Below are positions 32,541 through 43,727 of a DNA stretch of 64,000 bases, piece after piece. The number at the start of each line of letters is the position of its first letter. The first letter of the stretch is position 1. The position numbers and the translations under genes were made by a program. Below the pieces are notes generated by a model. It ran no database searches. It had not been told where the DNA came from and worked only from the letters and a program-made list of their open reading frames with translations. The DNA comes from Embleya hyalina (lineage in GTDB: Bacteria > Actinomycetota > Actinomycetes > Streptomycetales > Streptomycetaceae), in NCBI RefSeq assembly GCF_003967355.1, contig NZ_BIFH01000018.1, forward strand, positions 336,352-400,351, written 5' to 3'.

Positions 32541-32867
32541 ATGTATCGCCAGGGTGACATTCTGCTGCTTCCCGTCGACGAGGGCGCCGTGCCCGTCGGG
32601 GTGACCGGGTTGCCGGCCAAGCCGCGGGACGGGCGTGGCCGGATCGTGCTCGCGCTGGGTGAGGTCACCGGGCACGCGCACGCCGTGGTGGGGGCCGGCA
32701 CGTTGTTCCTCGACCCGGAGCCGACCACCATCGGTCACCTCAAGCTCGATGCCCCGACCCGGCTCGTGCACGAGGAGCACGCGACGATCTCGCTGCCCAA
32801 GGGCTGGTACAAAGTGGTTCGCCAGCGCGAATACATCCCGGGCGCGGTCCGCATCATCGCGGACTGA
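32541..32867 (+). CDS. Hypothetical 108-aa protein paired with DUF6745
   Basis: A compact beta-rich protein: MYRQGDILLLPVDEGAVP, then VLALGEVTGHAHAVVGAGTLFLDP, then HEEHATISLPKGWYKVVRQREYIPGAVR. The repeated His residues (GHAHAV, HEEHA) could bind metal, as in a cupin-like or small hydrolase fold. It lies 45 bp upstream of the DUF6745 gene and probably shares its transcript. Similar small genes appear to accompany DUF6745 genes in other actinomycetes, from memory. Function unknown. Confidence 0.65.
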   Translation: MYRQGDILLLPVDEGAVPVGVTGLPAKPRDGRGRIVLALGEVTGHAHAVVGAGTLFLDPEPTTIGHLKLDAPTRLVHEEHATISLPKGWYKVVRQREYIPGAVRIIAD

Positions 32868-32912
32868 CCCGCCGCCTCGACCGCCGACCCGCCACCTCCC
32901 CGGGAGCCTTCC

Positions 32913-34130
32913 GTGACCGCCGCCCCGACCGTCTTCCCGCAGCTCACGCTCGCGCACCGGGCGACCCTCGCCGAGTCCGCCGACGTGTGGGCCGAGGTCG
33001 CCGCGGCCGCGCGGCCCGCCGATCGGGACGCCGCCGAGCGCGGCATCCGGGCCGCCTACCGGGCGGCCGGGCTGGCCGAACCCGGCAAGATCCTGTGGTA
33101 CGCGTCGCCGCTCGCCGCCGCCGTGGCCGCGACCGTGGTGTCCGGCGCGTTCAAGCCGCAGGAACTCGCCGCGCTGCGGCTGCCCGTGCGGGCCCCCATG
33201 GGGTCGCGCGCCGGGGCGAGCGTGCGCGACCGGATCCGGTCGGCGAGTTGGGAACGCGCCCGGGCCGACGCGGTCGCGCTGCTCGGCCACACCGGCTGGG
33301 CGCAGGCCTGGGGCGAGATCGCGGAACGCCTGTGGGACCCGACCACGAGCCTGTCCGCACGCATCCGCGACGGCATCGAGGAGGCCGTGCTGTCCGCGAC
33401 CGGTACCGACCGCGGCCCGGCCCGGCGGGGCACGGTCACCCCGACGGCGCCCGTGGCCCGGGAGGCCCGTGCCGCGACCCTCGACGCGCTCGGCGGCCAG
33501 CACGACGCCGCCTGGCTCGCCGCGTTCGACGGCCTGCGGCGGTGCTTCCCGCGACTGGACGCCGCCCCGTCGGCGACTGCGCTGGACGCGGTCGCCGAGG
33601 TCGCGCGGTCCGCGGGCTGGTGGTGGCCGTACGAGAACGTCGTCCTGGTCGCCGAACGCCCCACCCTGCTGCACCGCGACGAGTCCGCGCGCCTGCACAA
33701 CGGCGAGGGCGCCGCGCTGGCCTTCCCCGACGGCTTCGCGCTGCACGCGTGGCGCGGCATGCCGGTGCCGGCCGACTTCGTGACCACCCTCGGCCCGGCC
33801 GGCGGCGCGCTGAACGCCCGGCGGATCCGGGACGAGGACAACGCCGAACTCCGTCGCGTCATGCTGGAGATCTACGGCTACGACCGCTACCTCGCCGAGG
33901 TCGGCGCCCGCCCGCTGCACCGCGACGAGATCGGTGTGCTGTGGCGCATCGAACTGCCCGGCGACGAGCCGATCGTGATGGTCGAAGTGCTCAACTCCAC
34001 GCCGGAGCCCGACGGTTCCGTCCGGGTCTACTGGCTGCGCGTCCCGCCGACCACGCGCACCGCCCGCGCCGGCGTGGCCTGGACCTTCGGCCTGACCGAA
34101 CAGGAATACCGTCCGGCCCGGGAGACCTGA
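32913..34130 (+). CDS. DUF6745 domain protein
   Basis: 405 aa, soluble. The middle and C-terminus carry the DUF6745 features: WWWPYENVVLVAERPTLLHR, RLHNGEGAALAFPDGFALHA, RRVMLEIYGYDRYL, and RTARAGVAWTFGLTEQEYRP. Function unknown. GTG at 32913 follows GGGAG. It faces the STM4011-STM4015 operon head to head at its 3' end (28 bp between stops), and both deal with uncharacterised protein families. A link is suggested only by proximity. Confidence 0.75.
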   Translation: MTAAPTVFPQLTLAHRATLAESADVWAEVAAAARPADRDAAERGIRAAYRAAGLAEPGKILWYASPLAAAVAATVVSGAFKPQELAALRLPVRAPMGSRAGASVRDRIRSASWERARADAVALLGHTGWAQAWGEIAERLWDPTTSLSARIRDGIEEAVLSATGTDRGPARRGTVTPTAPVAREARAATLDALGGQHDAAWLAAFDGLRRCFPRLDAAPSATALDAVAEVARSAGWWWPYENVVLVAERPTLLHRDESARLHNGEGAALAFPDGFALHAWRGMPVPADFVTTLGPAGGALNARRIRDEDNAELRRVMLEIYGYDRYLAEVGARPLHRDEIGVLWRIELPGDEPIVMVEVLNSTPEPDGSVRVYWLRVPPTTRTARAGVAWTFGLTEQEYRPARET

Positions 34131-34158: not shown

Positions 34159-35112
34159 TCAGGCGGTTTCCGGGCCGGCGCCGGTCGGCCGAGGCGCGCC
34201 GCCGGCCGGGTGCGGCCCGGTGCCGTACCCCGCCGGAATGCGCTCCAGGATCCCGCCCGCGAAGACGTCGTACAGCGGCAGCGCGTCCATGTGGACATAG
34301 CCGATGTGGCAGTCGCACAGCGGGCGCGGGCACGGGCGGCGCCCCAGGGCCGCGCGGAACGAGCCGTCGTAGAGGTTGCCCAACACCTCGGGTACGAAGT
34401 GGCAACGACGCACCACGCCGTCGCCGTCGACGCTGACCACCGTGTCCCCGGTCCGGCACGCCGCGCCCGCCGAGACGTGGGCGTGCCGGCTGAAGCCGAA
34501 GTGCGGGTCGAGGTCCGTCCACGCCGCGGCCTCGGCGTCGGTGTACGTACGGCCCTCGGCGGCGTTCACCCACAGGTACACCTCGGCCGGCAGGTCGCCG
34601 CGCAACCTCCGGGCGGCGGCCAGGTGTTCGGGAAGGCCGACGATCCCGACGGCGAAGCGCACGCCGCGCGCGCGGAGTTCGCGGCAACGACCGAGGAAGC
34701 GCTCGTACGGGACCTGGTCCGGGTGATACGTCCCCCACAGCGCCAACCGCCGCAGGTCCGCCGCCTCGGTCCACGACGGCCGGGCGCCCAGGTTCGTCTG
34801 CACGGCGACGCGGTCCACGTTCGGCAGATGGGTCAACTCGGCCAGGGTACGCCGGTACCAGGGCCGGACCAGTGCCTCGCCCCACGGCGTGAACAGCACC
34901 GAGATCCGCTCCGGGGCCGCCGCGATCCAGCCCGCGAAGCGCGTCAACGCCCGGCGGTCGGCCGTCAGTCGCGCACGCGAGTCGCGGCGTTTGGCGAACG
35001 GGCAGTAGCCGCAGTCGTAGTCGCAGGAGGCGAGCGGTCCGCGGTACAGGATCGTCAACGGCCGCGCGGCCTCGCGGGCCGAGGCGAGGGAGAGCGACGG
35101 CGGCACGCTCAC
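34159..35112 (-). CDS. STM4011-family radical SAM protein
   Basis: 317 aa. The N-terminal cluster motif CDYDCGYC (Cys30, 34, 37) binds the radical 4Fe-4S cluster, followed by barrel features such as LFTPWGEALVRPW and RVAVQTNLGARPSW. The C-terminus adds Cys in ACRTGD, RCHFVPEVLGNLYDGSF and CPRPLCDCHIGYVHM, a SPASM-like set that may hold an auxiliary cluster; SPASM enzymes often modify peptides or proteins. GTG 35112 overlaps the STM4012 stop by 4 bp (GTGA). Last gene of the operon. The reaction has not been described as far as I know. Confidence 0.88.
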   Translation of the reverse strand: MSVPPSLSLASAREAARPLTILYRGPLASCDYDCGYCPFAKRRDSRARLTADRRALTRFAGWIAAAPERISVLFTPWGEALVRPWYRRTLAELTHLPNVDRVAVQTNLGARPSWTEAADLRRLALWGTYHPDQVPYERFLGRCRELRARGVRFAVGIVGLPEHLAAARRLRGDLPAEVYLWVNAAEGRTYTDAEAAAWTDLDPHFGFSRHAHVSAGAACRTGDTVVSVDGDGVVRRCHFVPEVLGNLYDGSFRAALGRRPCPRPLCDCHIGYVHMDALPLYDVFAGGILERIPAGYGTGPHPAGGAPRPTGAGPETA

Positions 35113-36452
35113 CGTGCCCGATACCCGTCCATGAGCGCGGCCGCGGCCGAGGAGAACAGCGCCGGACCGATGGCGTCGGACCGGCCGAGGCCGTCCTCGG
35201 TGAGCGCGACACGATCCGTGTCGACACGCAACAGACCGCGGTCGGCGAGGGGTTCCAGCTCCCGGGCGAAGTCCGCGGCGGCGTCGGAGTCGAACCGGGC
35301 GCGGTACTCGGCGACGTCCAGCCCGTCGGCCTGGAGCAGCGAGGTGAGCAGGTGCCGGCGTTTTTGCTCGGCCGCGTCGAGACGGTAGCCGAACCGGGCC
35401 CGGGAGAAGGCGTCCCGGTCCAGGGCGACGTATTCGTCGATGATGCCGCGGACCTCGCCCACGTTCACCGCGTAGTCGAACGAATAGTGCAACTCGCTCG
35501 TGTAGGACCGGGCTCCGCAGCCCAGCCCCACCATGCCGTCGCGCTGGCACCGGTACCCGGTGTCCGGGTCGGCCGGGGCACCGGCGCGGCGGAACATCCG
35601 CATCGACACCTGCTCGTATCCGGCCGCGCGCAGGTGGTCGCGGCCCGCGCGGTAGAGCGCGAGCCGGTCGTCGTCCCAGTCGGCGCGCGAGACGGCGCGT
35701 CGGCCCAGCCCCGTGAGCGGGCGCACGTAGAGCGGGTACAGGTAGATCTCCTCGGGCCGCCAGGCGAGCGCCGCGTCGAGGGAGTCGAGCCAACTGGCGT
35801 GCGTCTGGCCGTCGATGCCGTAGATCAGGTCGATGTTCAGCGTCGGGACGGCCGCCTCGCGGATCGCGGTGAGCGCCGCCTCGACCTCGGCGCGCTTCTG
35901 CGGCCGCCCGGCGGCCCTCGCCTCCGCGTCGAGGAACGACTGCACGCCGATGCTCACCCGGGTCGTGCCGTGCGCGGCCAGGACCGCGAGCCGGTCGGGT
36001 GTGGCGGTCGCCGGCGAGGTCTCCACGGACAGCGGCATGGATCCGAACTCGGCGCCCATCACCTCGGCGGCGATGCGGAACATCCGGGTCAGCTCGGCGG
36101 CTTCCAGGTAGGTCGGTGTGCCGCCGCCGATCGCCCCGACCGCGAACCGCGCGTCGGGGACGGCCTCGCGTACCGCGTGCGCCTGCCGTTCCAGCGCGTC
36201 CAGGTAGCGCGCCACCAACTCCTGCGGCGCGCCGGTGCGGGTGAACAGGTTGCAGAACCCGCAGCGCATCTCGCAGAACGGTATGTGCAGGTACAGGAAC
36301 AGCGCGGACAGGTCCTGCCCCGCCCACACGTCGCGCAGCGCGGGCGCGGGTTCGAGCGGTCGGTAGGCGGTCTTGTGCGGGTACGAGTAGACGTATCCGG
36401 TGTACGGGGACCCGATGGCCACGGACGGGGCCTCGGCGGCGGTCGGGGCCAT
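35109..36452 (-). CDS. STM4012-family radical SAM protein
   Basis: 447 aa, HemN-like. The motif LHIPFCEMRCGFC gives Cys60, Cys64 and Cys67 for the radical cluster. It continues with GAIGGGTPTYLEAAEL, RVSIGVQSFLDAEARAAGRPQ, NIDLIYGIDGQT and a HemN-type C-terminal wing. Despite the HemN resemblance the gene is embedded in an operon unrelated to haem, so coproporphyrinogen oxidation is unlikely. It overlaps STM4011 downstream and follows STM4013 after 107 bp. Confidence 0.9.
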   Translation of the reverse strand: MAPTAAEAPSVAIGSPYTGYVYSYPHKTAYRPLEPAPALRDVWAGQDLSALFLYLHIPFCEMRCGFCNLFTRTGAPQELVARYLDALERQAHAVREAVPDARFAVGAIGGGTPTYLEAAELTRMFRIAAEVMGAEFGSMPLSVETSPATATPDRLAVLAAHGTTRVSIGVQSFLDAEARAAGRPQKRAEVEAALTAIREAAVPTLNIDLIYGIDGQTHASWLDSLDAALAWRPEEIYLYPLYVRPLTGLGRRAVSRADWDDDRLALYRAGRDHLRAAGYEQVSMRMFRRAGAPADPDTGYRCQRDGMVGLGCGARSYTSELHYSFDYAVNVGEVRGIIDEYVALDRDAFSRARFGYRLDAAEQKRRHLLTSLLQADGLDVAEYRARFDSDAAADFARELEPLADRGLLRVDTDRVALTEDGLGRSDAIGPALFSSAAAALMDGYRAR

Positions 36453-36559
36453 GGGACGGGTACCTCCGGACGTGCGACGGGCATGGCGACGAACCCCGCG
36501 AGCCTAGGCGGCGGGCCCGACACGGTGGGCGCCGGGGCGGCGGGCACCCGGGGCGGTGC

Positions 36560-37429
36560 TCACCACTCGCCGGGGGCGAGGGTGAAGTGGGCGTACGGGA
36601 CCGTCCACACCACCTCGTGGCCGAGCCGGTGGCCGGTGTAGCCGTCCTCGCCGTAGGCCGTGCCGTGGTCGGACGTGACGATCGCGAAGCACGGACGGCG
36701 GCTGCTCATCGCCCGGAACAGCCGGCCGATGTGCCGGTCCACGTACTCCAGTGCCGCGGCGTGCGTCTCCCGGGTGTCGCCGGCGGCCGGGTCGGCGCCC
36801 GCCAGGTGGAACCAGTTCGGCTGGTGCAGCGCCGAGACGTTGACCAGCAGGAACAGCCTCCGGTCGGAGTCCAGCGCGCCGACCACCCGCTCGGCGCACG
36901 CGACCTGGGCCTCGAACGAGGTGGGCGAGGCGACGCCGAGTTCCGGATCCCAGTGGCTCTCCGCGAACATGCCGGGCAACACCGAGCCGAGCGCGCCCCG
37001 CTTGTCGAAGAACCCGACGCCGCCGACGCAGGCCGTGTGGTAGCCCGCGGCGGCCAGCGCGGTCGGCAGGTCCGCGTCGTCGAAGACCCACGTGTGCGGC
37101 GCGGTCGACTCGCTCCCGCCGAACCGGGCGGCGAACAACCGCGGATGCGGACCCTGGCCCACCGGCGTCGGCAGGAAGCCGGCGAGGAAGGCGGTGTGCG
37201 CGGCGAACGTGAAGCTTCCCGGCGTGTGCCGCCGTTCCCAGCGGCCGTCCGGGAGCACCCGGGCCAGGTTGGGCAGGCGCCCCGCGGCGACGAGTTCGGC
37301 GGCGACGTCGTAGCGCAGCGTGTCCAGGGTCACCATCAGCAGGTCGTGCCGGCCGACGACGGCGTTCATGTCCGCGGGCGCGGATCGGCCGCTGCGCTCC
37401 CCGGGTTCGGGCGATGGTGGTGTCGTCAT
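36560..37429 (-). CDS. STM4013-family sulfatase/alkaline-phosphatase-fold hydrolase
   Basis: 289 aa. The fold is shown by LLMVTLDTLRYDVAAEL near the N-terminus (metal Asp36), a Thr/Ser nucleophile region GSFTFAAHTAFLAGFLPTP, and the late metal motif IVTSDHGTAYGEDGYTGHRLGH. There is no signal peptide, so it acts in the cytoplasm with the other operon proteins. Starts at ATG 37429, overlapping STM4014 by 4 bp. It may hydrolyse a phosphate or sulfate ester, or transfer a phospho group, in the unknown pathway. Confidence 0.88.
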   Translation of the reverse strand: MTTPPSPEPGERSGRSAPADMNAVVGRHDLLMVTLDTLRYDVAAELVAAGRLPNLARVLPDGRWERRHTPGSFTFAAHTAFLAGFLPTPVGQGPHPRLFAARFGGSESTAPHTWVFDDADLPTALAAAGYHTACVGGVGFFDKRGALGSVLPGMFAESHWDPELGVASPTSFEAQVACAERVVGALDSDRRLFLLVNVSALHQPNWFHLAGADPAAGDTRETHAAALEYVDRHIGRLFRAMSSRRPCFAIVTSDHGTAYGEDGYTGHRLGHEVVWTVPYAHFTLAPGEW

Positions 37430-38589
37430 GTCGGGCACGGAACTCGATCCTCGTCTCGTGGCGCCGCACCGGTGGATCCGGCCGGCCGCCAACCTTCCAC
37501 CAGGGCGTGGACCTGCTCCCCCCACGTGTCCCGACCCCGGCGCAGCACACCGGGCAGCAGGTCCCCGAACGCGTTGACCTCGCCCACGGCGTGCCGGCGC
37601 CGATCCACCGCGAACAGCAGGTCGACGCCGACGTGCAGCGTACGGGGGAAACACTCGGCCGCCCGGACGCAGGTCGCCATCGCCCGCGCCCAGGCGTCCT
37701 CCCCGACGGAGCGACGCACGGCCGCGACGTCGCCGCGCGCGTTGCCCAGGTGCAGGTTCGTCATCGGCGACCGGCTCGACCGGGCCACGACGTGCGTGGC
37801 CCGCCCCGCGACGACCAGGACGCGCAGGTCGGTCGCGCGCCCGTCCAGGGTCAGCTTCGGCAACCACGCCTCGACGTGCAGGCCGTCCGCGTCGCAGTCC
37901 GCGCCGAGCGCGTCCACCAGCGCCGCGACGTCGGCTTCGTCGCGGTATCTGCCGATCCGCAGCGAGTTGTACAGGGCGATGCCGCCCGCCTCGCGCACGA
38001 GTTCGACGGACGTCGTCGCCTGGACGCGCGTCGTTCCGTGCGTCTCCAGGGCCACCACACCGGACGCCGAAGACCCGTGCGGCGGCTTGACGAACACCCG
38101 AGGGCAGCGCGCGTCGGCCATTCGCCGCCGCAGGTCGGCGTACGACCGCACCGGCGCCGTCGCGGGCCCGGTCAGCGCGCGCGGCAGCGGAACGTCGTGC
38201 GCCTCCAACAACGAGTGCGCCCGGCGCTTGTCGAACATCACCGCGATCTCCCCGGCGTCGTTCACCGACCACGCCCCGGGGGAGGCCGCCACGGCGGCTT
38301 CGATCCGCCCGAGCGCGGCGACGAACGCGGCATGCCGGGCGCTGCCGCCCTCGACCCGGAACGGGTCGGCGGGCGCGCCGCTCAGCAGCGTGTGCACGTC
38401 CGCGTCCTCGCCCGGCGAGTCGATCCGCACCGGCCCGGCGGGGAAGACGAGCGGCTCCCGGGAGAGGACGTCGCGCCAGGCGACCAACCGCGGCTCGGGC
38501 AGCCCCGCCGCCTCGGCCGCCGCGGCGAACCCGGCGACGCGGCGATGGCCGGGATTGCCCACGACGGTGACGGCGGGACGTTCGATCAC
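37426..38589 (-). CDS. STM4014-family ATP-grasp-like protein
   Basis: 387 aa. The order of motifs fits an ATP-grasp ligase: DKRRAHSLLEAHDVPLPRAL, then the lysine strand RVFVKPPHGSSASGVVAL, then DLRVLVVAGRATHVVARSS, then the magnesium-binding end HVGVDLLFAVDRR with GEVNAFGDLLPG. Such enzymes form acyl-phosphates and join carboxylates to amines, including on peptide C-termini or side chains. GTG 38589. It sits 22 bp after the first STM4015 paralogue and overlaps STM4013 by 4 bp. Confidence 0.85.
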   Translation of the reverse strand: MIERPAVTVVGNPGHRRVAGFAAAAEAAGLPEPRLVAWRDVLSREPLVFPAGPVRIDSPGEDADVHTLLSGAPADPFRVEGGSARHAAFVAALGRIEAAVAASPGAWSVNDAGEIAVMFDKRRAHSLLEAHDVPLPRALTGPATAPVRSYADLRRRMADARCPRVFVKPPHGSSASGVVALETHGTTRVQATTSVELVREAGGIALYNSLRIGRYRDEADVAALVDALGADCDADGLHVEAWLPKLTLDGRATDLRVLVVAGRATHVVARSSRSPMTNLHLGNARGDVAAVRRSVGEDAWARAMATCVRAAECFPRTLHVGVDLLFAVDRRRHAVGEVNAFGDLLPGVLRRGRDTWGEQVHALVEGWRPAGSTGAAPRDEDRVPCPT

Positions 38590-38611
38590 GCCGTCACTCC
38601 CGCGCGGCGGG

Positions 38612-39589
38612 TCATTCGGAGACCTCGGTGTAGCGGCCCGAGCCCCAGTCCCGCAACTCCTCGGAGCGGCCGATGTCGACGGTGACCCCGTGCGGGCGCA
38701 ACGTCGCCCGCAGGCGCTCGGCCATCGGGTCGGACACGAAGTGGTGGTGGACGCGCAGCGTCTTCAGGTGGGTGAGCGGCTGACCGGCGAGCAGCGCCTC
38801 GGCGCCTTCGTCGCCCAGGGTACCCATCGACAGGTCGAGGGATTCCAGGCGGGCGGTCAGCGGCGCGGCGGCCACGGCCGCGGCGACGGCGTCCTGGATC
38901 TCACTGTTCATCAGGCCGAGCCGGCGCAGCGCCGGGACGCGTACGCCGGACAGCAGCTCCGCGAGGTCGTCGACGGTCGCGGTGCCGCCGTACCGGTCGA
39001 CGCCCAGCCAGATCTCCAGGCTCTCCAGCGCCGGGAGGTCGCAGAGGCCGATGGCGCCGACGAGGCGCGCGGACAGGCCGCCGCTCTCGAACCGCAGGGC
39101 ACGCAACGCGTCGTGGCGCAGCGGCTCCAGCGCCGGCGCGGTGTCCGGGTTGCCGTCGAAGGCGCCGCCGCGCACGACGAGTTCTTCCAGCCGCGGGTAG
39201 GCGCGCAGCACCGGGGTGAGGGTGCCGATGCTCATCCACGAGATCTCGGACTCCTCCTGGACGACATCGCCGAGGAACAGGTGCCGGAGGTTCGGGAACC
39301 GGTCCACGTGCTCCACCAGGAGCCCGAGCGCGGGACTCTCGGCGGACAGGTCGTCGGTCCAGCACCCACACAGCAGCGCGGTGACCCGGGTGGTGTCCAC
39401 GGTGTCGAGGAAGTACCGGAACCGCTTCTCGAATTCGGCCTCCTCGTCGTCCCACGGGTCCACCCGGAGGCGCCAGGCGACGGCGTCCGGCGGGTCGCCC
39501 GGCGTGCTCGACGTCGCGGTGGAGTCGCGGGGCGGGAGGTCGACGACGGGCAGGCCGCCGAAGTGCGGGGTGAACTCGTAGAGCGACAT
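38612..39589 (-). CDS. STM4015-family leucine-rich protein, copy 1
   Basis: 325 aa. An N-terminal segment containing FGGLPVVDLPP and a domain with WRLRVDPWDDEEAEFEKRFRYFLDTVDTTRVTALL are followed by leucine-rich repeats (PNLRHLFLGDV, YPRLEELVVRGG, ALESLEIWLG, PALRRLGLMNSEIQDAVAAAVA, LESLDLSMGTLGDEGAEALL). It ends after a short linker with SGRYTEVSE. The paralogue 79 bp upstream is clearly homologous and has the same final motif. Most likely a binding scaffold or the substrate of the operon enzymes. Confidence 0.88.
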   Translation of the reverse strand: MSLYEFTPHFGGLPVVDLPPRDSTATSSTPGDPPDAVAWRLRVDPWDDEEAEFEKRFRYFLDTVDTTRVTALLCGCWTDDLSAESPALGLLVEHVDRFPNLRHLFLGDVVQEESEISWMSIGTLTPVLRAYPRLEELVVRGGAFDGNPDTAPALEPLRHDALRALRFESGGLSARLVGAIGLCDLPALESLEIWLGVDRYGGTATVDDLAELLSGVRVPALRRLGLMNSEIQDAVAAAVAAAPLTARLESLDLSMGTLGDEGAEALLAGQPLTHLKTLRVHHHFVSDPMAERLRATLRPHGVTVDIGRSEELRDWGSGRYTEVSE

Positions 39590-39668
39590 GTGCTGTTCCT
39601 GGCTTCCGGGCGGGTTCGGACGGCCGGGCGGCGGGGCGCCTGCGGCCGGTGGCGGGTGTGCGGGTCGC

Positions 39669-40652
39669 TCACTCCGCGACGGCGATGTAGCGCCAGGCCT
39701 CCTCGCCGTCGTCGTCGGCCTGCTGCGGGTCGCCGAGGTCGAGCGCGAGGCCGGGTGCCGAAAGGGCCGCGGTGAGTCGTTCCCGCATGGCGGGGGTGAT
39801 GAAATGGTGGCTGAGGTTGAGCACCCGCAGGTGTCCGAGGGGTTGACCGATGAGCAGCGCCTCGGCGCCCTCGTTGCCCAACGCGCCCATGGACAGGTCG
39901 AGTTCGGTCAGCCGTCCGAGCACGGGGGACGCCGAGACCGCGGCCGCGACCTCGTCCTGGATCTCGCTGTTCATCAGGCCGAGTCGGGTGAGCGCGGGCA
40001 GGCCGCCGGCGCGCAGGATGCCCTCGATGTCGCGGACGGTCGCGTCGCCGCCGTACTCGTCGGTGCCCAGCCACAGCTCCAGCGTGCGCAGTGCCGGGAA
40101 GGTGCTCGCGCCGACCGCGCGCACCACGCGCGCGGGGAGTCCGCCGGTGCGGAACTCCAGGTGCCGCAGGCTCTCGTGGCGCACGGGTTCGAGCACGAGG
40201 TCCTGGCCGCCCTGGACGATCAGCGTCTCCAGCCGGGGAAACGCCTCGAACAGCGGCGTGATGTCCGACTGGAGGATCCACGAGATCTCGTTCTCCTCCG
40301 GCGTGATGTCGCCGAAGTAGAGGTGGCGCAGCGCCGGCAGCCGGTCGGCGGCGTCGACGAGCGAGCGCACCGCCTCCTTCGAGTCCTCGCCCGGCTCCCA
40401 CATGCCGACCAGCACGGCGGTGACCAGCGTGGTGTCGACGGTGTCGAGGAAACGCGCGACGTGCTCGGTGAACTTCTCCGAGCTCGGATACCCCTCGATC
40501 CGCAGCCGCCACGCCGCGTCCGCCGCGGCGGGGAGCGGCTTCGCGTTCCTCGCCGCCGCGTTGTCGGCCCGCGTGGCCTTGGGGTTCACCATCGGGTTGA
40601 GCTCGGCTATGGGCAGTCCGGCGAACCGCTCGTCGCCGTCGTAGTTCGACAT
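39669..40652 (-). CDS. STM4015-family leucine-rich protein, copy 2
   Basis: 327 aa, co-linear with copy 1: FAGLPIAELNP at the start, WRLRIEGYPSSEKFTEHVARFLDTVDTTLVTAVL, the same repeats (LRTLELWLGTDEYGGDATV, GLMNSEIQDEVAAAVSAS, LSMGALGNEGAEALLIGQPL) and an acidic linker DDDGEEAW ending in RYIAVAE. It is the first STM401x gene and begins 42 bp after the PucR stop on the same strand. Two copies with conserved repeat faces but different linkers suggest functional specialisation. Confidence 0.88.
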   Translation of the reverse strand: MSNYDGDERFAGLPIAELNPMVNPKATRADNAAARNAKPLPAAADAAWRLRIEGYPSSEKFTEHVARFLDTVDTTLVTAVLVGMWEPGEDSKEAVRSLVDAADRLPALRHLYFGDITPEENEISWILQSDITPLFEAFPRLETLIVQGGQDLVLEPVRHESLRHLEFRTGGLPARVVRAVGASTFPALRTLELWLGTDEYGGDATVRDIEGILRAGGLPALTRLGLMNSEIQDEVAAAVSASPVLGRLTELDLSMGALGNEGAEALLIGQPLGHLRVLNLSHHFITPAMRERLTAALSAPGLALDLGDPQQADDDGEEAWRYIAVAE

Positions 40653-40694: not shown

Positions 40695-42308
40695 CTACCA
40701 GTCGAGCCGGCCGCCGAGGCGCAACCGCAGCCACAACACCAGCCGTTCGTCCGGGTCGGCGAGATCGAACCCGAAGATCTCGGTGGCCCGGGAGAGCCGG
40801 TAGCGGATCGTGTTCGGGTGTACGGACAGCAGATGCGAGGCGGCCGCGACATCGCCGTCGGCGTCCAGGTAGGCGAGGATGGTGGGCGCGTAGGTGGTGC
40901 CGTGTTCCAGGTCGTGGGCGCGGATCGCCGGTCCGAGCCGGCGGGGGACCACCTCGTGCGTGGCCAGCATCCCGGCCAGCGCGGACAACGTCGCGCCGGC
41001 CCACATCTCGTCGATCGAGGCCACCTGGCACGGTTGTGGATCACCCGGCCGCTCGGACAGCGCGCGCAGCACCAGATCCGCGTCGGCGCGCGAACTCTCG
41101 ATCGAGCGCAGTTCCTGGACGGGCGAGCCGAGTCCGGCCCGGACGGGCACCCGCAGCGCGCTGTGCGCCCGCCGCGCGATGTAGGCGACGAGTTCGCGGT
41201 GCGCGTTCGGCGACGGTTCGCTCGGGAGCAGCGCGTAGACCGTTCCGTCGATCAGCGCGCAGCCGTGTCTGCCGTAGCGTGCCTCGCAGTGCAGGCTCAC
41301 CAGGTCGGCCAGCCGGGTGGCCGCGTGTGCGGTGAGCGCGTCCTCGGCGTCGACCGAGGCGACGGCGAACGCGGCCATGGCGACGGGCAGGTTCGGGTCC
41401 AGACCGAGCTGTGGGGCCACCGCCGTGACACTGCTCGGATCGGCCAACAACCGCCGCAGCAGGTCGGCGTACCTGCGCCGGACGGCGGACTCCGTGGTGC
41501 GGGCCGCGAGCAGGTGCAGCGCGACGTTGTCCGCCACGTCGGACAGGGCCTGTTCGGCGGCGGAGTCCAGGTGTTCGCCGGCGTCGACGACCCAGATCGA
41601 CCCCAACACCTCGCTGCCCACGCGGACGGCGACACCGAGCCGGGGAAGTCCCCCGGGAACGGCGGGGAAGCGGCAGGTGCGCCCGAGCCGGGTGAGCACC
41701 CGGTACTGCTCGTCGTAGTCCGGGCCGTCGGGCACCTGGAGGCCGAGGATGCCCTGGCGGCGGCCCTCGTCGACGGCCTGGCCGGGCAGGGTCGAGTAGG
41801 CGAGGATGCGCCGGTGCGGATCCTCGATCACGGTGGCTCCGCCGACCATGCCGGCGATCGCGTTGGCCAACGCGAACAGGTCGCCGAAGGCCGGGGCGCC
41901 CGCGGCCTGCCCGAAGCGCACCGTCGGGGTGAGGGCCGAGGAGATCATGGCGTCCAGGTGATGCCAGGCCACCGCCTCGTTGGCGGCCAGGAGCACGATG
42001 CCGGCCTGTCGGGCGGCTTCCACCAACGCGGTGACCGGCTCGCCGAAGCTCTTCACCACCAGGCACGTGTACCCGGCCTGTGCCGCCGAGCCGATCAGGT
42101 CCGTCGCCCGTGCCTCGTCCATCCCCACGCCGACGGCGAGCAGGATCGCGTCGGTCACGGCGGGGAGGGGCAGCGGGGCGCGTCGCTCGTAGATGAGTAC
42201 GCCCGAGACCGGCACCGGTTTTTCCGGCGGGTCGGTCAACGGCCGCAACAGGGACGAGCCCAGTACCTCCAGGACCTGTCCGAGATCGGGAACCCCGGTA
42301 CCGAGCAT
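40695..42308 (-). CDS. PucR-family transcriptional regulator
   Basis: 537 aa. The N-terminal PucR domain (VSGVLIYERRAPLPLPAVTDAILLAVGVGM) and a central GAF-like region with GGATVIEDPHRRILAYS are followed by the C-terminal HTH_30 with LSVHPNTIRYRLSRATEIFG. PucR-type regulators sense nitrogen or peptide-derived metabolites. ATG 42308 follows AAGGGG. Its promoter region contains copy A of a 120-bp repeat also found before the peptide transporter and racemase genes, so it is the best candidate regulator of that regulon. It may also read through into the STM401x operon (42-bp gap). Confidence 0.9.
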   Translation of the reverse strand: MLGTGVPDLGQVLEVLGSSLLRPLTDPPEKPVPVSGVLIYERRAPLPLPAVTDAILLAVGVGMDEARATDLIGSAAQAGYTCLVVKSFGEPVTALVEAARQAGIVLLAANEAVAWHHLDAMISSALTPTVRFGQAAGAPAFGDLFALANAIAGMVGGATVIEDPHRRILAYSTLPGQAVDEGRRQGILGLQVPDGPDYDEQYRVLTRLGRTCRFPAVPGGLPRLGVAVRVGSEVLGSIWVVDAGEHLDSAAEQALSDVADNVALHLLAARTTESAVRRRYADLLRRLLADPSSVTAVAPQLGLDPNLPVAMAAFAVASVDAEDALTAHAATRLADLVSLHCEARYGRHGCALIDGTVYALLPSEPSPNAHRELVAYIARRAHSALRVPVRAGLGSPVQELRSIESSRADADLVLRALSERPGDPQPCQVASIDEMWAGATLSALAGMLATHEVVPRRLGPAIRAHDLEHGTTYAPTILAYLDADGDVAAASHLLSVHPNTIRYRLSRATEIFGFDLADPDERLVLWLRLRLGGRLDW

Positions 42309-42315
42309 TCTCACC

Positions 42316-42435
42316 CCTTTGGCCGGCCACACAAAGCATTCGGGGAATCTCTGGATCGGCGTCACATGTCCCCGGCCGATCCGGGCGCCACGCTTTCCGC
42401 ATGCACAATCCGGCAGGCGGGCGGCGGGCACATCC
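42316..42435 (-). repeat. 120-bp shared element, copy A
   Basis: Read on the minus strand toward PucR, this matches 50856-50975 (plus strand) without gaps over 120 bp with about 16 differences. The best conserved blocks are GATTGTGCATGCGGAAAGCG and CCAGAGATTCC-x-CGAATGC and CCGGCCAAAG. In this copy the end supplies the PucR ribosome site. A 23-codon ORF (42362-42433, minus) lies inside. Confidence 0.85.
42362..42433 (-). CDS. Possible conserved 23-aa micropeptide in copy A
   Basis: ATG...TGA ORF whose product starts MCPPPACRIVHAES and ends SAGDM. Compared with the copy B ORF, all four nucleotide differences in its central part (HAESVAPGSAG) are synonymous third-position changes, which hints at selection on the peptide. 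No good ribosome site precedes it, so it may instead be a conserved DNA or RNA element. Confidence 0.35.
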   Translation of the reverse strand: MCPPPACRIVHAESVAPGSAGDM

Positions 42436-42611
42436 AGTGACCGTACCTGCAACGACCCCATGGAGCGCAACCGACCGCAGTCGGCCGTGACGGGCCGAAT
42501 GCCGCCGGTGACCGCCGACCGTTTGCCCGCTCGCGGATATCGAAATCCGTATCCGTCGGGCGTTATCGATTACGGCACATGTATGAGTGCTGTGCTGCAG
42601 AAGGAGACATT

Positions 42612-43727
42612 GTGCGATACAGGACGAGTGCGGTCGTGGCCTTGGCGTGTGCGGCCTCTTTGCTGACGGTGCCGACGAAGGCGGGCGCGGCGCCGCAGTG
42701 TGACACCACGCCCATCCGGACGGCGATGAAGGCACTGGAAGGTGTCGGCGCCACGGGGATGAGCGTGACGGTGAAGAGCCCGAACTGTGGGGTCCGCACG
42801 GGCGGTGTCGGCCTCGCCGATCGCAGAACGGGCCGCAAGGTCGTCGGCGACGAGCACAGCCGCATCGGCAGCGACACCAAGACCTGGACGGCCACCGTCG
42901 TGCTGCAACTCGTCGGCGAGGGCCGGATCGGTCTCGACGACACCGTGGACGACTACCTGCCGGGTCTGATCCGCACCAGGCTCTACGACGGGCGCACCAT
43001 CACGATCCGACAGCTTCTGCAGCACACCAGCGGCCTGCCCGACTACCTGGACGCGCCGTTCTGGGAGGACGAGGAGGCGCACCGCTGGGATCACATCGAG
43101 CCCCTGCAGACGGTCCGGCAGGCGCTCGCCCTGCCCAGGCCCGAGCGCGCGCCGTCGGGCTTCGCCTACTCCAACACCAACTACAACCTGGTCGGTCTGA
43201 TCGTCAAGGAGGTCACGGGCCGCAGCATCGCCACCGAGATCGAGGAGCGGATCATCGCACCGCTCGGACTGTGCGAGACCGAATGGGCCGGCGATCGCAC
43301 CACCTTGCCCAAGCCGGAGTTGCGCGGTTACGTGGAGCGGGGCAAGACCCTGGTGGACCGGACCGAATGGAACACCTCGGAGGCCGACGCGTCGGGCGCG
43401 CTGATCTCCGACGGTGCGGACACCACCACCTTCTGGACCGCCCTGTTGACCGGGAAGCTGCTGGCCCCGGCCCAACTCGCGGAGCTGAAGAAGACGGTCG
43501 CCGAGGACGTCGCGAACGAACGCTACGGCCTGGGCGTCGAGCGCCACGAGCCCTACCCGGGCTTCGTGCTGTGGGGACACAGCGGCAGCATGTCCAGCGG
43601 CCACAAGTTCCGGAACGCCGTCACCGACGACGGCCGACGGTCGGTGACCCTGCTGATCGGCTCGGAGTCGTTCGACTCGGACCGGGTGGACGCCATCATG
43701 AGCAAGCTCCTGCGCGACCTGCGCTGA
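42612..43727 (+). CDS. Secreted serine DD-peptidase / beta-lactamase-fold hydrolase
   Basis: 371 aa with a signal peptide (VVALACAASLLTVPTKAGA). The three active-site elements of class C beta-lactamases and DD-peptidases are present: SDTK (SxxK), YSNTN (YxN) and GHSGSM (HxG). Also QHTSGLPDY and LVGLIVKEVTGRSI. GTG 42612 follows AAGGAGA. Likely substrates are D-Ala-containing peptides or D-amino-acid amides or esters outside the cell. It is divergent from PucR and near the oligopeptide importer and a D-amino-acid-type racemase, which together suggest peptide salvage. A hairpin terminator follows. Confidence 0.9.
   Translation: MRYRTSAVVALACAASLLTVPTKAGAAPQCDTTPIRTAMKALEGVGATGMSVTVKSPNCGVRTGGVGLADRRTGRKVVGDEHSRIGSDTKTWTATVVLQLVGEGRIGLDDTVDDYLPGLIRTRLYDGRTITIRQLLQHTSGLPDYLDAPFWEDEEAHRWDHIEPLQTVRQALALPRPERAPSGFAYSNTNYNLVGLIVKEVTGRSIATEIEERIIAPLGLCETEWAGDRTTLPKPELRGYVERGKTLVDRTEWNTSEADASGALISDGADTTTFWTALLTGKLLAPAQLAELKKTVAEDVANERYGLGVERHEPYPGFVLWGHSGSMSSGHKFRNAVTDDGRRSVTLLIGSESFDSDRVDAIMSKLLRDLR

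What the first reader, a model, noticed from the sequence alone, without database searches (positions are those of the whole stretch)
34159..40652. STM4011-STM4015 operon: two radical SAM enzymes, ATP-grasp and sulfatase-fold proteins with two LRR paralogues ending in RY-x-x-V-x-E
Six co-directional, mostly overlapping genes encode the uncharacterised STM4011-4015 families. Seen in sequence: both LRR proteins end in the motif RY-x-x-V-(S/A)-E (RYTEVSE and RYIAVAE) after a short variable acidic or polar linker, although the linkers differ. Known: radical SAM plus ATP-grasp pairs often modify a conserved C-terminal core on a larger leader protein. Inference: the LRR part is a recognition or carrier domain, the C-terminal tail is the modified segment, and STM4013 acts on a phosphate or sulfate intermediate.
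Basis: partly seen in the sequence, partly recalled or inferred. Interest (0 to 1): 0.8.

Follow-up and report, generated by a model that had tools for sequence, protein, structure and literature searches.

The report
LRR protein as probable small-molecule carrier
A gene set found in many bacterial phyla seems to attach and modify something on the last amino acid, almost always glutamate, of a leucine-rich-repeat protein, which would make that protein an unusual new kind of chemical carrier; this is inferred from sequence and predicted structure, not shown by experiment.

Summary
In detail: six same-strand genes, all above the NCBIfam cut-offs for STM4011-4015, with two STM4015 paralogues ending in RYIAVAE and RYTEVSE. 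Only two of five junctions overlap.

STM4014, modelled at pLDDT 93, matches ArgX bound to LysW best; graspetide ligase PsnB, LysX and RimK are also high. LysX and ArgX build amides on the C-terminal glutamate of a carrier protein. STM4015-STM4014 stay together even in the six genomes where the operon is broken. Best reading: STM4015 is an LRR-scaffold carrier loaded at its terminal Glu by STM4014. STM4011 and STM4012 then act on the load.

STM4013 probably has a threonine nucleophile, not the sulfatase cysteine (weak alignment, invariant Thr), so phosphate is likelier than sulfate. HAD phosphatase fusions and an APS-kinase-like neighbour agree.

Against: AlphaFold models the tail as ordered, no releasing peptidase was seen to recur, and no substrate is known. 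A homologue structure, PDB 2ra8, exists uncharacterised. No experiment was done.

The parts
39669..40652 (-). STM4015 family LRR protein A (327 aa), proposed carrier; C-terminus ...WRYIAVAE
   Evidence: NF038076 349.6 bits; AlphaFold pLDDT 92.9, LRR fold
38612..39589 (-). STM4015 family LRR protein B (325 aa), paralogue; C-terminus ...GRYTEVSE
   Evidence: NF038076 342.7 bits
39669..39695 (-). last 8 codons plus stop of LRR-A: conserved tail with terminal Glu
   Evidence: 93 of 94 distinct STM4015 tails end in Glu; terminal Glu invariant in 71 of 71 rows of A9
38612..38638 (-). last 8 codons plus stop of LRR-B: conserved tail with terminal Glu
37426..38589 (-). STM4014 ATP-grasp ligase (387 aa), proposed to load the terminal Glu of STM4015
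   Evidence: NF038074 413.8 bits; model pLDDT 92.9, top PDB match ArgX with LysW
36560..37429 (-). STM4013 alkaline-phosphatase-superfamily enzyme, probable Thr nucleophile
   Evidence: NF038075 412.9 bits; T74 invariant in 48 of 48; aligned to the choline-sulfatase Cys in a weak N-terminal alignment, 6.7 bits; F-T-x-x-x-H in 85 of 86
35109..36452 (-). STM4012 HemN-like radical SAM enzyme with HemN_C domain
   Evidence: NF006067 631.5 bits; PF04055 and PF06969; PDB hits HemN 1olt and NocN 9p2u
34159..35112 (-). STM4011 radical SAM enzyme with a SPASM-like C-terminal cysteine region
   Evidence: NF038073 384.3 bits; profile matches SkfB, E 3e-4; fused to HAD-IIB in other clades
32913..34130 (+). 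DUF6745 protein, convergent partner of the operon in many relatives; role unknown
   Evidence: PF20530 331.2 bits; within about 8 kb of the operon in 21 of 24 operon-bearing relatives
32541..32867 (+). 108-aa protein paired with DUF6745; no Pfam match at E <= 1
   Evidence: found beside DUF6745 in 9 of 9 loci that have DUF6745 (three of the nine helped to build the search profile)

Best explanation
STM4015 is an LRR-scaffold carrier protein. STM4014, a LysX/ArgX/RimK-like ATP-grasp ligase, activates a carboxylate of its C-terminal Glu (the gamma-carboxylate if it works like LysX) and joins it by an amide to the amino group of a small molecule or amino acid. STM4012 (HemN-like) and STM4011 (SPASM-like) then carry out radical chemistry on the load or next to it. 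STM4013, helped in some clades by a HAD-IIB phosphatase and an APS-kinase-like enzyme, adds, moves or removes phosphate. Several paralogous carriers share one enzyme set. Shown: gene content, conserved order, near-invariant terminal Glu, structural group of the ligase. Inferred: loading, the linkage, the order of steps, the nucleophile of STM4013, the product and how it is released.
For: Terminal Glu in 93 of 94 named-record tails and 59 of 63 distinct tails from the window genome and unnamed relatives (the two sets share one genome). Foldseek of the STM4014 model: rank 1 is ArgX with LysW (3vpb, E 6.8e-12); PsnB is rank 3, DcsG 6, LysX/ArgX with LysW-gamma-AAA 9, LysX 14. Profile against PDB sequences: LysX 7e-6 and RimK 5e-5 are the best. 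LysX links its substrate to the gamma-carboxyl of the C-terminal Glu54 of LysW, and the same residue of Natrinema ArgW is crucial in vivo (PMC10433800, passages). STM4015 is acidic (mean net charge -28.9, 97 sequences) while STM4014 (+1.7) and STM4011 (+4.0) are neutral to basic, in line with the electrostatic recognition described for amino-group carriers (PMC9303977, passages). STM4015-STM4014 adjacent in 79 of 79 loci holding both (78 by script, L042 by annotation); where the operon is inverted in part or split between contigs the pair stays together in 6 of 6 genomes. 24 of 24 relatives with STM4012 and STM4014 over cut-off also have STM4015. Tandem or scattered paralogues mostly keep the tail. 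STM4014 has Arg or Lys in 97-100% of rows at 8 columns (some of them surely for ATP); in STM4015 the best Arg/Lys column reaches 86%.
Against: AlphaFold places the last 7 residues at pLDDT 94, so the tail may be docked on the LRR and its conservation may partly be structural. I saw no LysK-like releasing peptidase among the recurrent neighbours, but one search printed only families shared by at least three loci, 25 at most, which I named by eye. TM-scores to ArgX are moderate (0.57 by query, 0.75 by target, rmsd 5.2), PsnB ranks third, and inositol-pyrophosphate kinases (rank 20) precede RimK (rank 25). STM4012 (-6.9) and STM4013 (-1.9) are not basic. In the LRR plus ATP-grasp pairs L128-L130 the ligase keeps only 5 or 6 of 18 invariant residues. 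Three relatives (G008, G024, G039) have STM4015 without the enzymes over cut-off. Four of 63 relatives' tails lack Glu. STM4015 shares neither fold nor EDWGE motif with LysW.
Confidence: 0.45

Rival explanations
1. RiPP-like modification: the radical SAM enzymes modify residues inside the tail (aromatic at -6 to -8, hydrophobic at -3), and STM4014 crosslinks the Glu like a graspetide ligase; STM4015 is a precursor with a very large folded leader.
For: PsnB, a graspetide ligase bound to its precursor, ranks third for STM4014. STM4011 has a SPASM-like region matching the RiPP maturase SkfB. Multiple paralogues with a shared tail are typical of precursors.
Against: Within the tail only the terminal Glu is near-universal; no Ser, Thr or Lys acceptor is invariant, and Tyr at -6 is lacking in 37 of 94 tails. 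The tail is modelled as ordered. I saw no leader protease among the recurrent neighbours listed (by eye).
Confidence: 0.25
2. The tail is a structural C-cap or latch that folds onto the LRR and docks enzymes; STM4015 is a scaffold or sensor, and the four enzymes act on a free, phosphorylated small molecule that STM4014 ligates.
For: High confidence of the tail in the model (pLDDT 94). Conserved residues along the LRR (W85, D115, E122, W125, Y200, D233, S254, H283). N-terminal WGR domain on STM4015 in 5 of 9 proteins scanned, all from Bacteroidota and myxobacterial-type loci. STM4013 also occurs without an LRR in the fetched stretch of L045.
Against: A cap would not obviously need Glu exactly at the terminus; the LRR body has no invariant basic partner for it. 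The tail outscores the linker and the body.
Confidence: 0.22
3. RimK-like protein modification: STM4014 appends one or more amino acids to the C-terminal Glu of STM4015 as an end product that changes LRR function, with no small molecule released.
For: RimK is among the best sequence matches and is in the fold list (rank 25). No releasing peptidase was seen to recur (by eye).
Against: Does not explain two radical SAM enzymes and STM4013, present in 74 of 88 loci together with STM4014 and STM4015; LysX and ArgX match better than RimK.
Confidence: 0.08

Closest known systems
LysW / ArgW amino-group carrier proteins with LysX / ArgX
   Same: Carrier ends in Glu; acidic carrier; dedicated ATP-grasp ligase of the nearest structural group (PMC10433800 passages)
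   Different: STM4015 is a roughly 300-aa LRR protein, not a zinc-ribbon; tail is RY/F-x-x-V/L-x-E, not EDWGE; radical SAM and phosphate enzymes in place of kinase-reductase-aminotransferase steps (recalled); no LysK-like peptidase seen
Graspetide ligases (PsnB, MdnC type)
   Same: ATP-grasp ligase on a peptide carboxylate; PsnB ranks third by fold
   Different: No invariant Ser, Thr or Lys acceptor in the tail; radical SAM enzymes accompany it
Pearlins (TglA, TmoA carrier peptides)
   Same: Chemistry built on the C-terminus of a ribosomal carrier by amide linkage, with a radical SAM step in one case (PMC9303977 passages)
   Different: Loading there uses a PEARL and aminoacyl-tRNA; here an ATP-grasp enzyme; the carrier here is a folded LRR
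NCBIfam STM4011-STM4015 families
   Same: Every protein is a member above cut-off
   Different: The family names assign no specific function
PDB 2ra8, Q64V53_BACFR
   Same: Solved STM4015 homologue (profile E 1.2e-100) whose sequence reaches ...DDYSYPMITE
   Different: Named 'uncharacterized protein'; the entry runs 8 residues beyond the Glu (354 of 362), presumably a tag (recalled), so the terminus was not free

Membership tests
STM4015 family (NF038076) | Score over the curated cut-off of 275 bits | tested here: met
   349.6 and 342.7 bits
Amino-group carrier system (LysW/LysX) | Carrier ends in Glu at the very C-terminus | tested here: met
   93 of 94; 71 of 71 in A9; 59 of 63 in relatives
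Amino-group carrier system (LysW/LysX) | Small zinc-ribbon carrier with EDWGE motif | tested here: not met
   LRR fold and different tails; so it is not a LysW family member
Amino-group carrier system (LysW/LysX) | Dedicated ligase of the LysX/ArgX group | tested here: inconclusive
   Best fold match and best profile match, but 16% identity to ArgX and 16.9 bits against a LysX_arch cut-off of 275.6
Amino-group carrier system (LysW/LysX) | Amide bond from the terminal Glu to a substrate amine | not testable with these tools
   Needs mass spectrometry
Graspetide | Conserved acceptor (Ser/Thr/Lys) and donor (Asp/Glu) in a core peptide | tested here: not met
   Donor Glu yes; no invariant acceptor in the last 12 positions
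Formylglycine sulfatase (for STM4013) | Cys or Ser in C/S-x-P/A-x-R at the nucleophile position (motif recalled) | tested here: not met
   [CS]x[PA]xR anywhere in 6 of 86 sequences, with Cys in 1 of 86; F-T-x-x-x-H in 85 of 86; Thr aligned to the choline-sulfatase Cys, weakly (6.7 bits)
Radical SAM, HemN class (STM4012) | CxxxCxxC site plus HemN_C domain | tested here: met
   PF04055 68 bits, PF06969 37.2 bits; three cysteines invariant in the 7 rows of A5
SPASM radical SAM (STM4011) | C-terminal SPASM domain | tested here: inconclusive
   PF13186 reached only 18.5 and 17.2 bits in 2 of 5 fused relatives (cut-off 21.5) and was not reported for the window protein; SkfB profile hit E 3e-4; five invariant cysteines in the region in 7 rows

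The most novel reading that the evidence does not exclude
A previously unrecognised carrier-protein chemistry spread over about nine bacterial phyla, including gut Lachnospiraceae and Bacteroides, Paenibacillus, cyanobacteria and Salmonella. An LRR protein carries a covalently bound, phosphate-bearing small molecule on its terminal glutamate while two radical SAM enzymes remodel it, and one enzyme set serves several LRR carriers, some encoded elsewhere in the genome.
Probability: 0.35. Interest if true: 0.85.

Novelty: new variant of a known kind. Interest (0 to 1): 0.62.

Why it matters
The five families are widespread and named only by Salmonella locus tags, with no specific function assigned. 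If the terminal Glu of STM4015 is the loading site, one MS experiment opens the pathway, and it would be the first case I know of in which a folded LRR protein serves as a covalent biosynthetic carrier (recalled; the searches showed none, though one search listed only 15 of 210 papers). The solved but undescribed structure 2ra8 could be re-read at once with this question.

Tried and rejected
Sulfatase reading of STM4013: held unlikely, for the Thr at the nucleophile position and the absence of the Cys motif in 85 of 86 sequences. Defence system: PADLOC gave only one weak hit, 25 bits, for the HemN-like protein. Terminal Glu as a by-product of ATGA gene overlap: rejected, since both GAA and GAG are used and the tail is kept with 79- and 22-base gaps in the window and in solitary LRRs. 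Minimal LRR plus ATP-grasp pair (L128-L130) as proof of a ligase unit: weakened, because the ATP-grasp there has lost most invariant residues. Solitary LRRs: no clear common neighbour (10 loci read by eye; only 6 neighbour proteins from four of them went to Pfam). Literature: only two papers mention the locus tags; one was seen as a single passage listing STM4013.S in a sigma-54 binding table (PMC3844500), the other (PMC2784778) only in the listing. PMC10433800, PMC9303977 and PMC9062424 were seen as passages. Rows dropped before counts: ORFs running off contig ends and tails with identical last 30 residues, for the unnamed set, hits under 150 bits, open ORFs and identical last 40 residues. 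A genome-wide motif search in G000 was planned and not done. The third structure comparison and the viral library were not used.
Full report
What is there. The window comes from a 12.05 Mb genome, probably Embleya (Streptomycetaceae), since the nearest named protein matches are Embleya records (77% and 75% for STM4012). Six minus-strand genes encode two STM4015 paralogues, STM4014, STM4013, STM4012 and STM4011, all above curated NCBIfam cut-offs. Gaps are 79, 22, -4, 107 and -4 bases. Converging on them are a 108-aa protein and a DUF6745 protein.

Spread and order. Of these 88 loci, 74 hold all five families and 71 of the 74 have them on one strand in the order 4015-4014-4013-4012-4011; the other three are L085, L111 and L118. 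By my reading of record titles the STM4015 proteins come from nine phyla. STM4015 and STM4014 are both present in 79 loci and adjacent on one strand in all 79; the script counted 78, and the annotated genes of L042 overlap. In L085, L111 and L118 the pair is turned round as a unit. L059, L060 and L073 lack the pair, but their genomes hold it together on another contig. So the two travel together in 6 of 6 broken operons. Two further loci with neither (L076, L090) are short contigs, L107 and L054 have STM4015 but no STM4014 hit, and L045 and L047 have only STM4013. L055 has STM4015 and STM4014 but no STM4013 hit, and four loci end before STM4011. Among 61 genomes of the window's kin (itself included), 27 have STM4015 over the cut-off, 24 have STM4014 and the same 24 have STM4012; the three with STM4015 alone are G008, G024 and G039. 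In an even sample of the phylum, 6 of 396 genomes, the window's own among them, have STM4015.

The tail. Of 94 distinct complete STM4015 C-termini, 93 end in Glu. The exception, in L113, reads RYCSVAD and runs on for five residues. Position -3 is L, V or I in 91 of 94; R at -7 in 63; Y at -6 in 57. Actinobacterial tails read RYVAVSE, Paenibacillus WRYPSLTE, Lachnospiraceae YMNAMLTE, Bacteroidota YYPMITE, cyanobacteria RYCSVAE, as examples. In 63 distinct tails from the window genome and unnamed relatives 59 end in Glu; three tandem copies end in RYVGIGA or RYLGIGA and one solitary copy in RHVHFGV. Five tandem copies in G030 and six in G004 stand before one enzyme set, and further solitary copies elsewhere in those genomes keep the tail. 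By relative entropy with 26.6 effective sequences, the last 8 positions average 2.64 bits, the linker 1.91, the LRR body 2.17; the terminal Glu is 12th of 279 positions. The linker is 40% Asp plus Glu.

STM4014. The window protein was modelled on a 61-row alignment: pLDDT 92.9, pTM 0.91. Foldseek against the PDB gave 383 chains at E <= 0.001, 50 of them shown: ArgX with LysW first (E 6.8e-12), then PsnB with its precursor (rank 3), D-cycloserine synthetase DcsG, LysX/ArgX with LysW-gamma-AAA, LysX, inositol-pyrophosphate kinases, RimK and D-Ala ligases. An independent profile search of PDB sequences puts LysX first (7e-6) and RimK next (5e-5), and the LysX alignment shows a shared D-x-R ... 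R-x-S ... I-T-N stretch. LysX joins the amino group of its substrate to the gamma-carboxyl of the terminal Glu54 of LysW, and the same Glu of Natrinema ArgW is crucial for arginine synthesis in vivo (PMC10433800, passages only). RimK extends the C-terminal Glu of ribosomal protein S6 (recalled).

The other enzymes. STM4012 matches HemN and the methyltransferase NocN. STM4011 has three cysteines of a radical SAM site and five later invariant cysteines in seven aligned sequences; its profile matches SkfB. STM4013 matches sulfatases and nucleotide pyrophosphatases, chiefly in its C-terminal half. In the weak N-terminal alignment to choline sulfatase (6.7 bits) Thr stands where that enzyme has its catalytic Cys; that Thr is invariant in 48 of 48 and F-T-x-x-x-H occurs in 85 of 86 sequences, the 86th being a fragment. 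In 32 of 81 STM4011 sequences the protein is longer than 400 aa; 5 of 5 that I scanned carry a HAD hydrolase domain. In Salmonella a Cof-type HAD gene overlaps the end of STM4011 by 16 bases. In 7 of the 25 Paenibacillaceae loci a gene of one similarity cluster follows STM4011 directly; the one that I scanned is adenylyl-sulfate-kinase-like (PF01583, 183.7 bits). All this speaks for phosphate chemistry somewhere in the pathway, but which compound is phosphorylated is unknown.

Mechanism. I commit to the carrier reading at 0.45: STM4014 loads an amine on the terminal Glu of STM4015, the radical SAM enzymes modify the load, and STM4013 handles phosphate. The charge pattern fits in part: STM4015 averages -28.9, STM4014 +1.7, STM4013 -1.9, STM4012 -6.9, STM4011 +4.0; recognition of acidic carriers by positive enzyme residues is described for amino-group carriers (PMC9303977, passages). 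The strongest point against a free swinging tail is the model of STM4015: residues 321-327 have pLDDT 94. The LRR body has no Arg or Lys column above 86%, which leaves the conserved Glu without an invariant basic partner there, while STM4014 has eight columns at 97-100%, some of them surely for ATP.

Known or new. The families are known by name only. Full-text searches for the locus tags, for SEN3798-3802, and for radical SAM with leucine-rich repeat and ATP-grasp found no functional study (in one search none of the 15 papers listed, of 210, held the words leucine-rich repeat); that library lacks most subscription papers. A solved homologue, 2ra8, exists, and a search for its code found no paper. 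I rate this a new variant of a known kind: it would work like an amino-group carrier system but is not a LysW family member.

Noticed in passing
window 32541-34130: 108-aa protein and DUF6745 protein: DUF6745 lies within about 8 kb of the operon in 21 of 24 operon-bearing relatives, and the pair lies beside it in Deinococcus, Methylobacterium and Chloroflexota. The Deinococcus DUF6745 protein has weak LRR matches before or in the domain. Role unknown.
   Followed up: partly
window 40695-42470: PucR-type regulator ends 42 bases before LRR-A on the same strand; the same neighbour is present in the sister genome G002 (L011).
   Followed up: partly
L128 7909-9872, L129, L130: Second locus type: an STM4015 LRR with intact tail next to a degenerate STM4014-like ATP-grasp gene; in L128 a HAD-IIB gene is divergent to it and a trypsin-like protein follows.
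   Followed up: partly
L045 7848-11297: Streptomyces albidoflavus plasmid: STM4013-like protein with a MoaA-like radical SAM, a dTMP-kinase-like protein, a 159-aa protein and a NUDIX hydrolase, without LRR or STM4014 in the 20.7 kb fetched.
   Followed up: partly
L096, L119, L085, L111, L118: STM4015 proteins of Bacteroidota and myxobacterial-type loci carry an N-terminal WGR domain (5 of 9 scanned).
   Followed up: partly
L132 6834-7703; L135 7417-9021: Solitary STM4015 genes followed by a Y_phosphatase3 gene in G024 and by a Peptidase_M14 (zinc carboxypeptidase) gene in G030 C18; the latter could bear on release but was seen once.
   Followed up: no
L118: Record labelled Comamonas has the gene arrangement and tails of the Myxococcus locus L111; the label may be wrong.
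   Followed up: no
G014:C1:818335-819717: STM4012 match falls in three pieces, the middle one in another open frame, so it may be disrupted or misassembled.
   Followed up: no
window 42579-43727: Serine beta-lactamase-family hydrolase (PF00144, 168.5 bits), below the cut-off of each of the 25 NCBIfam models shown of 35.
   Followed up: no
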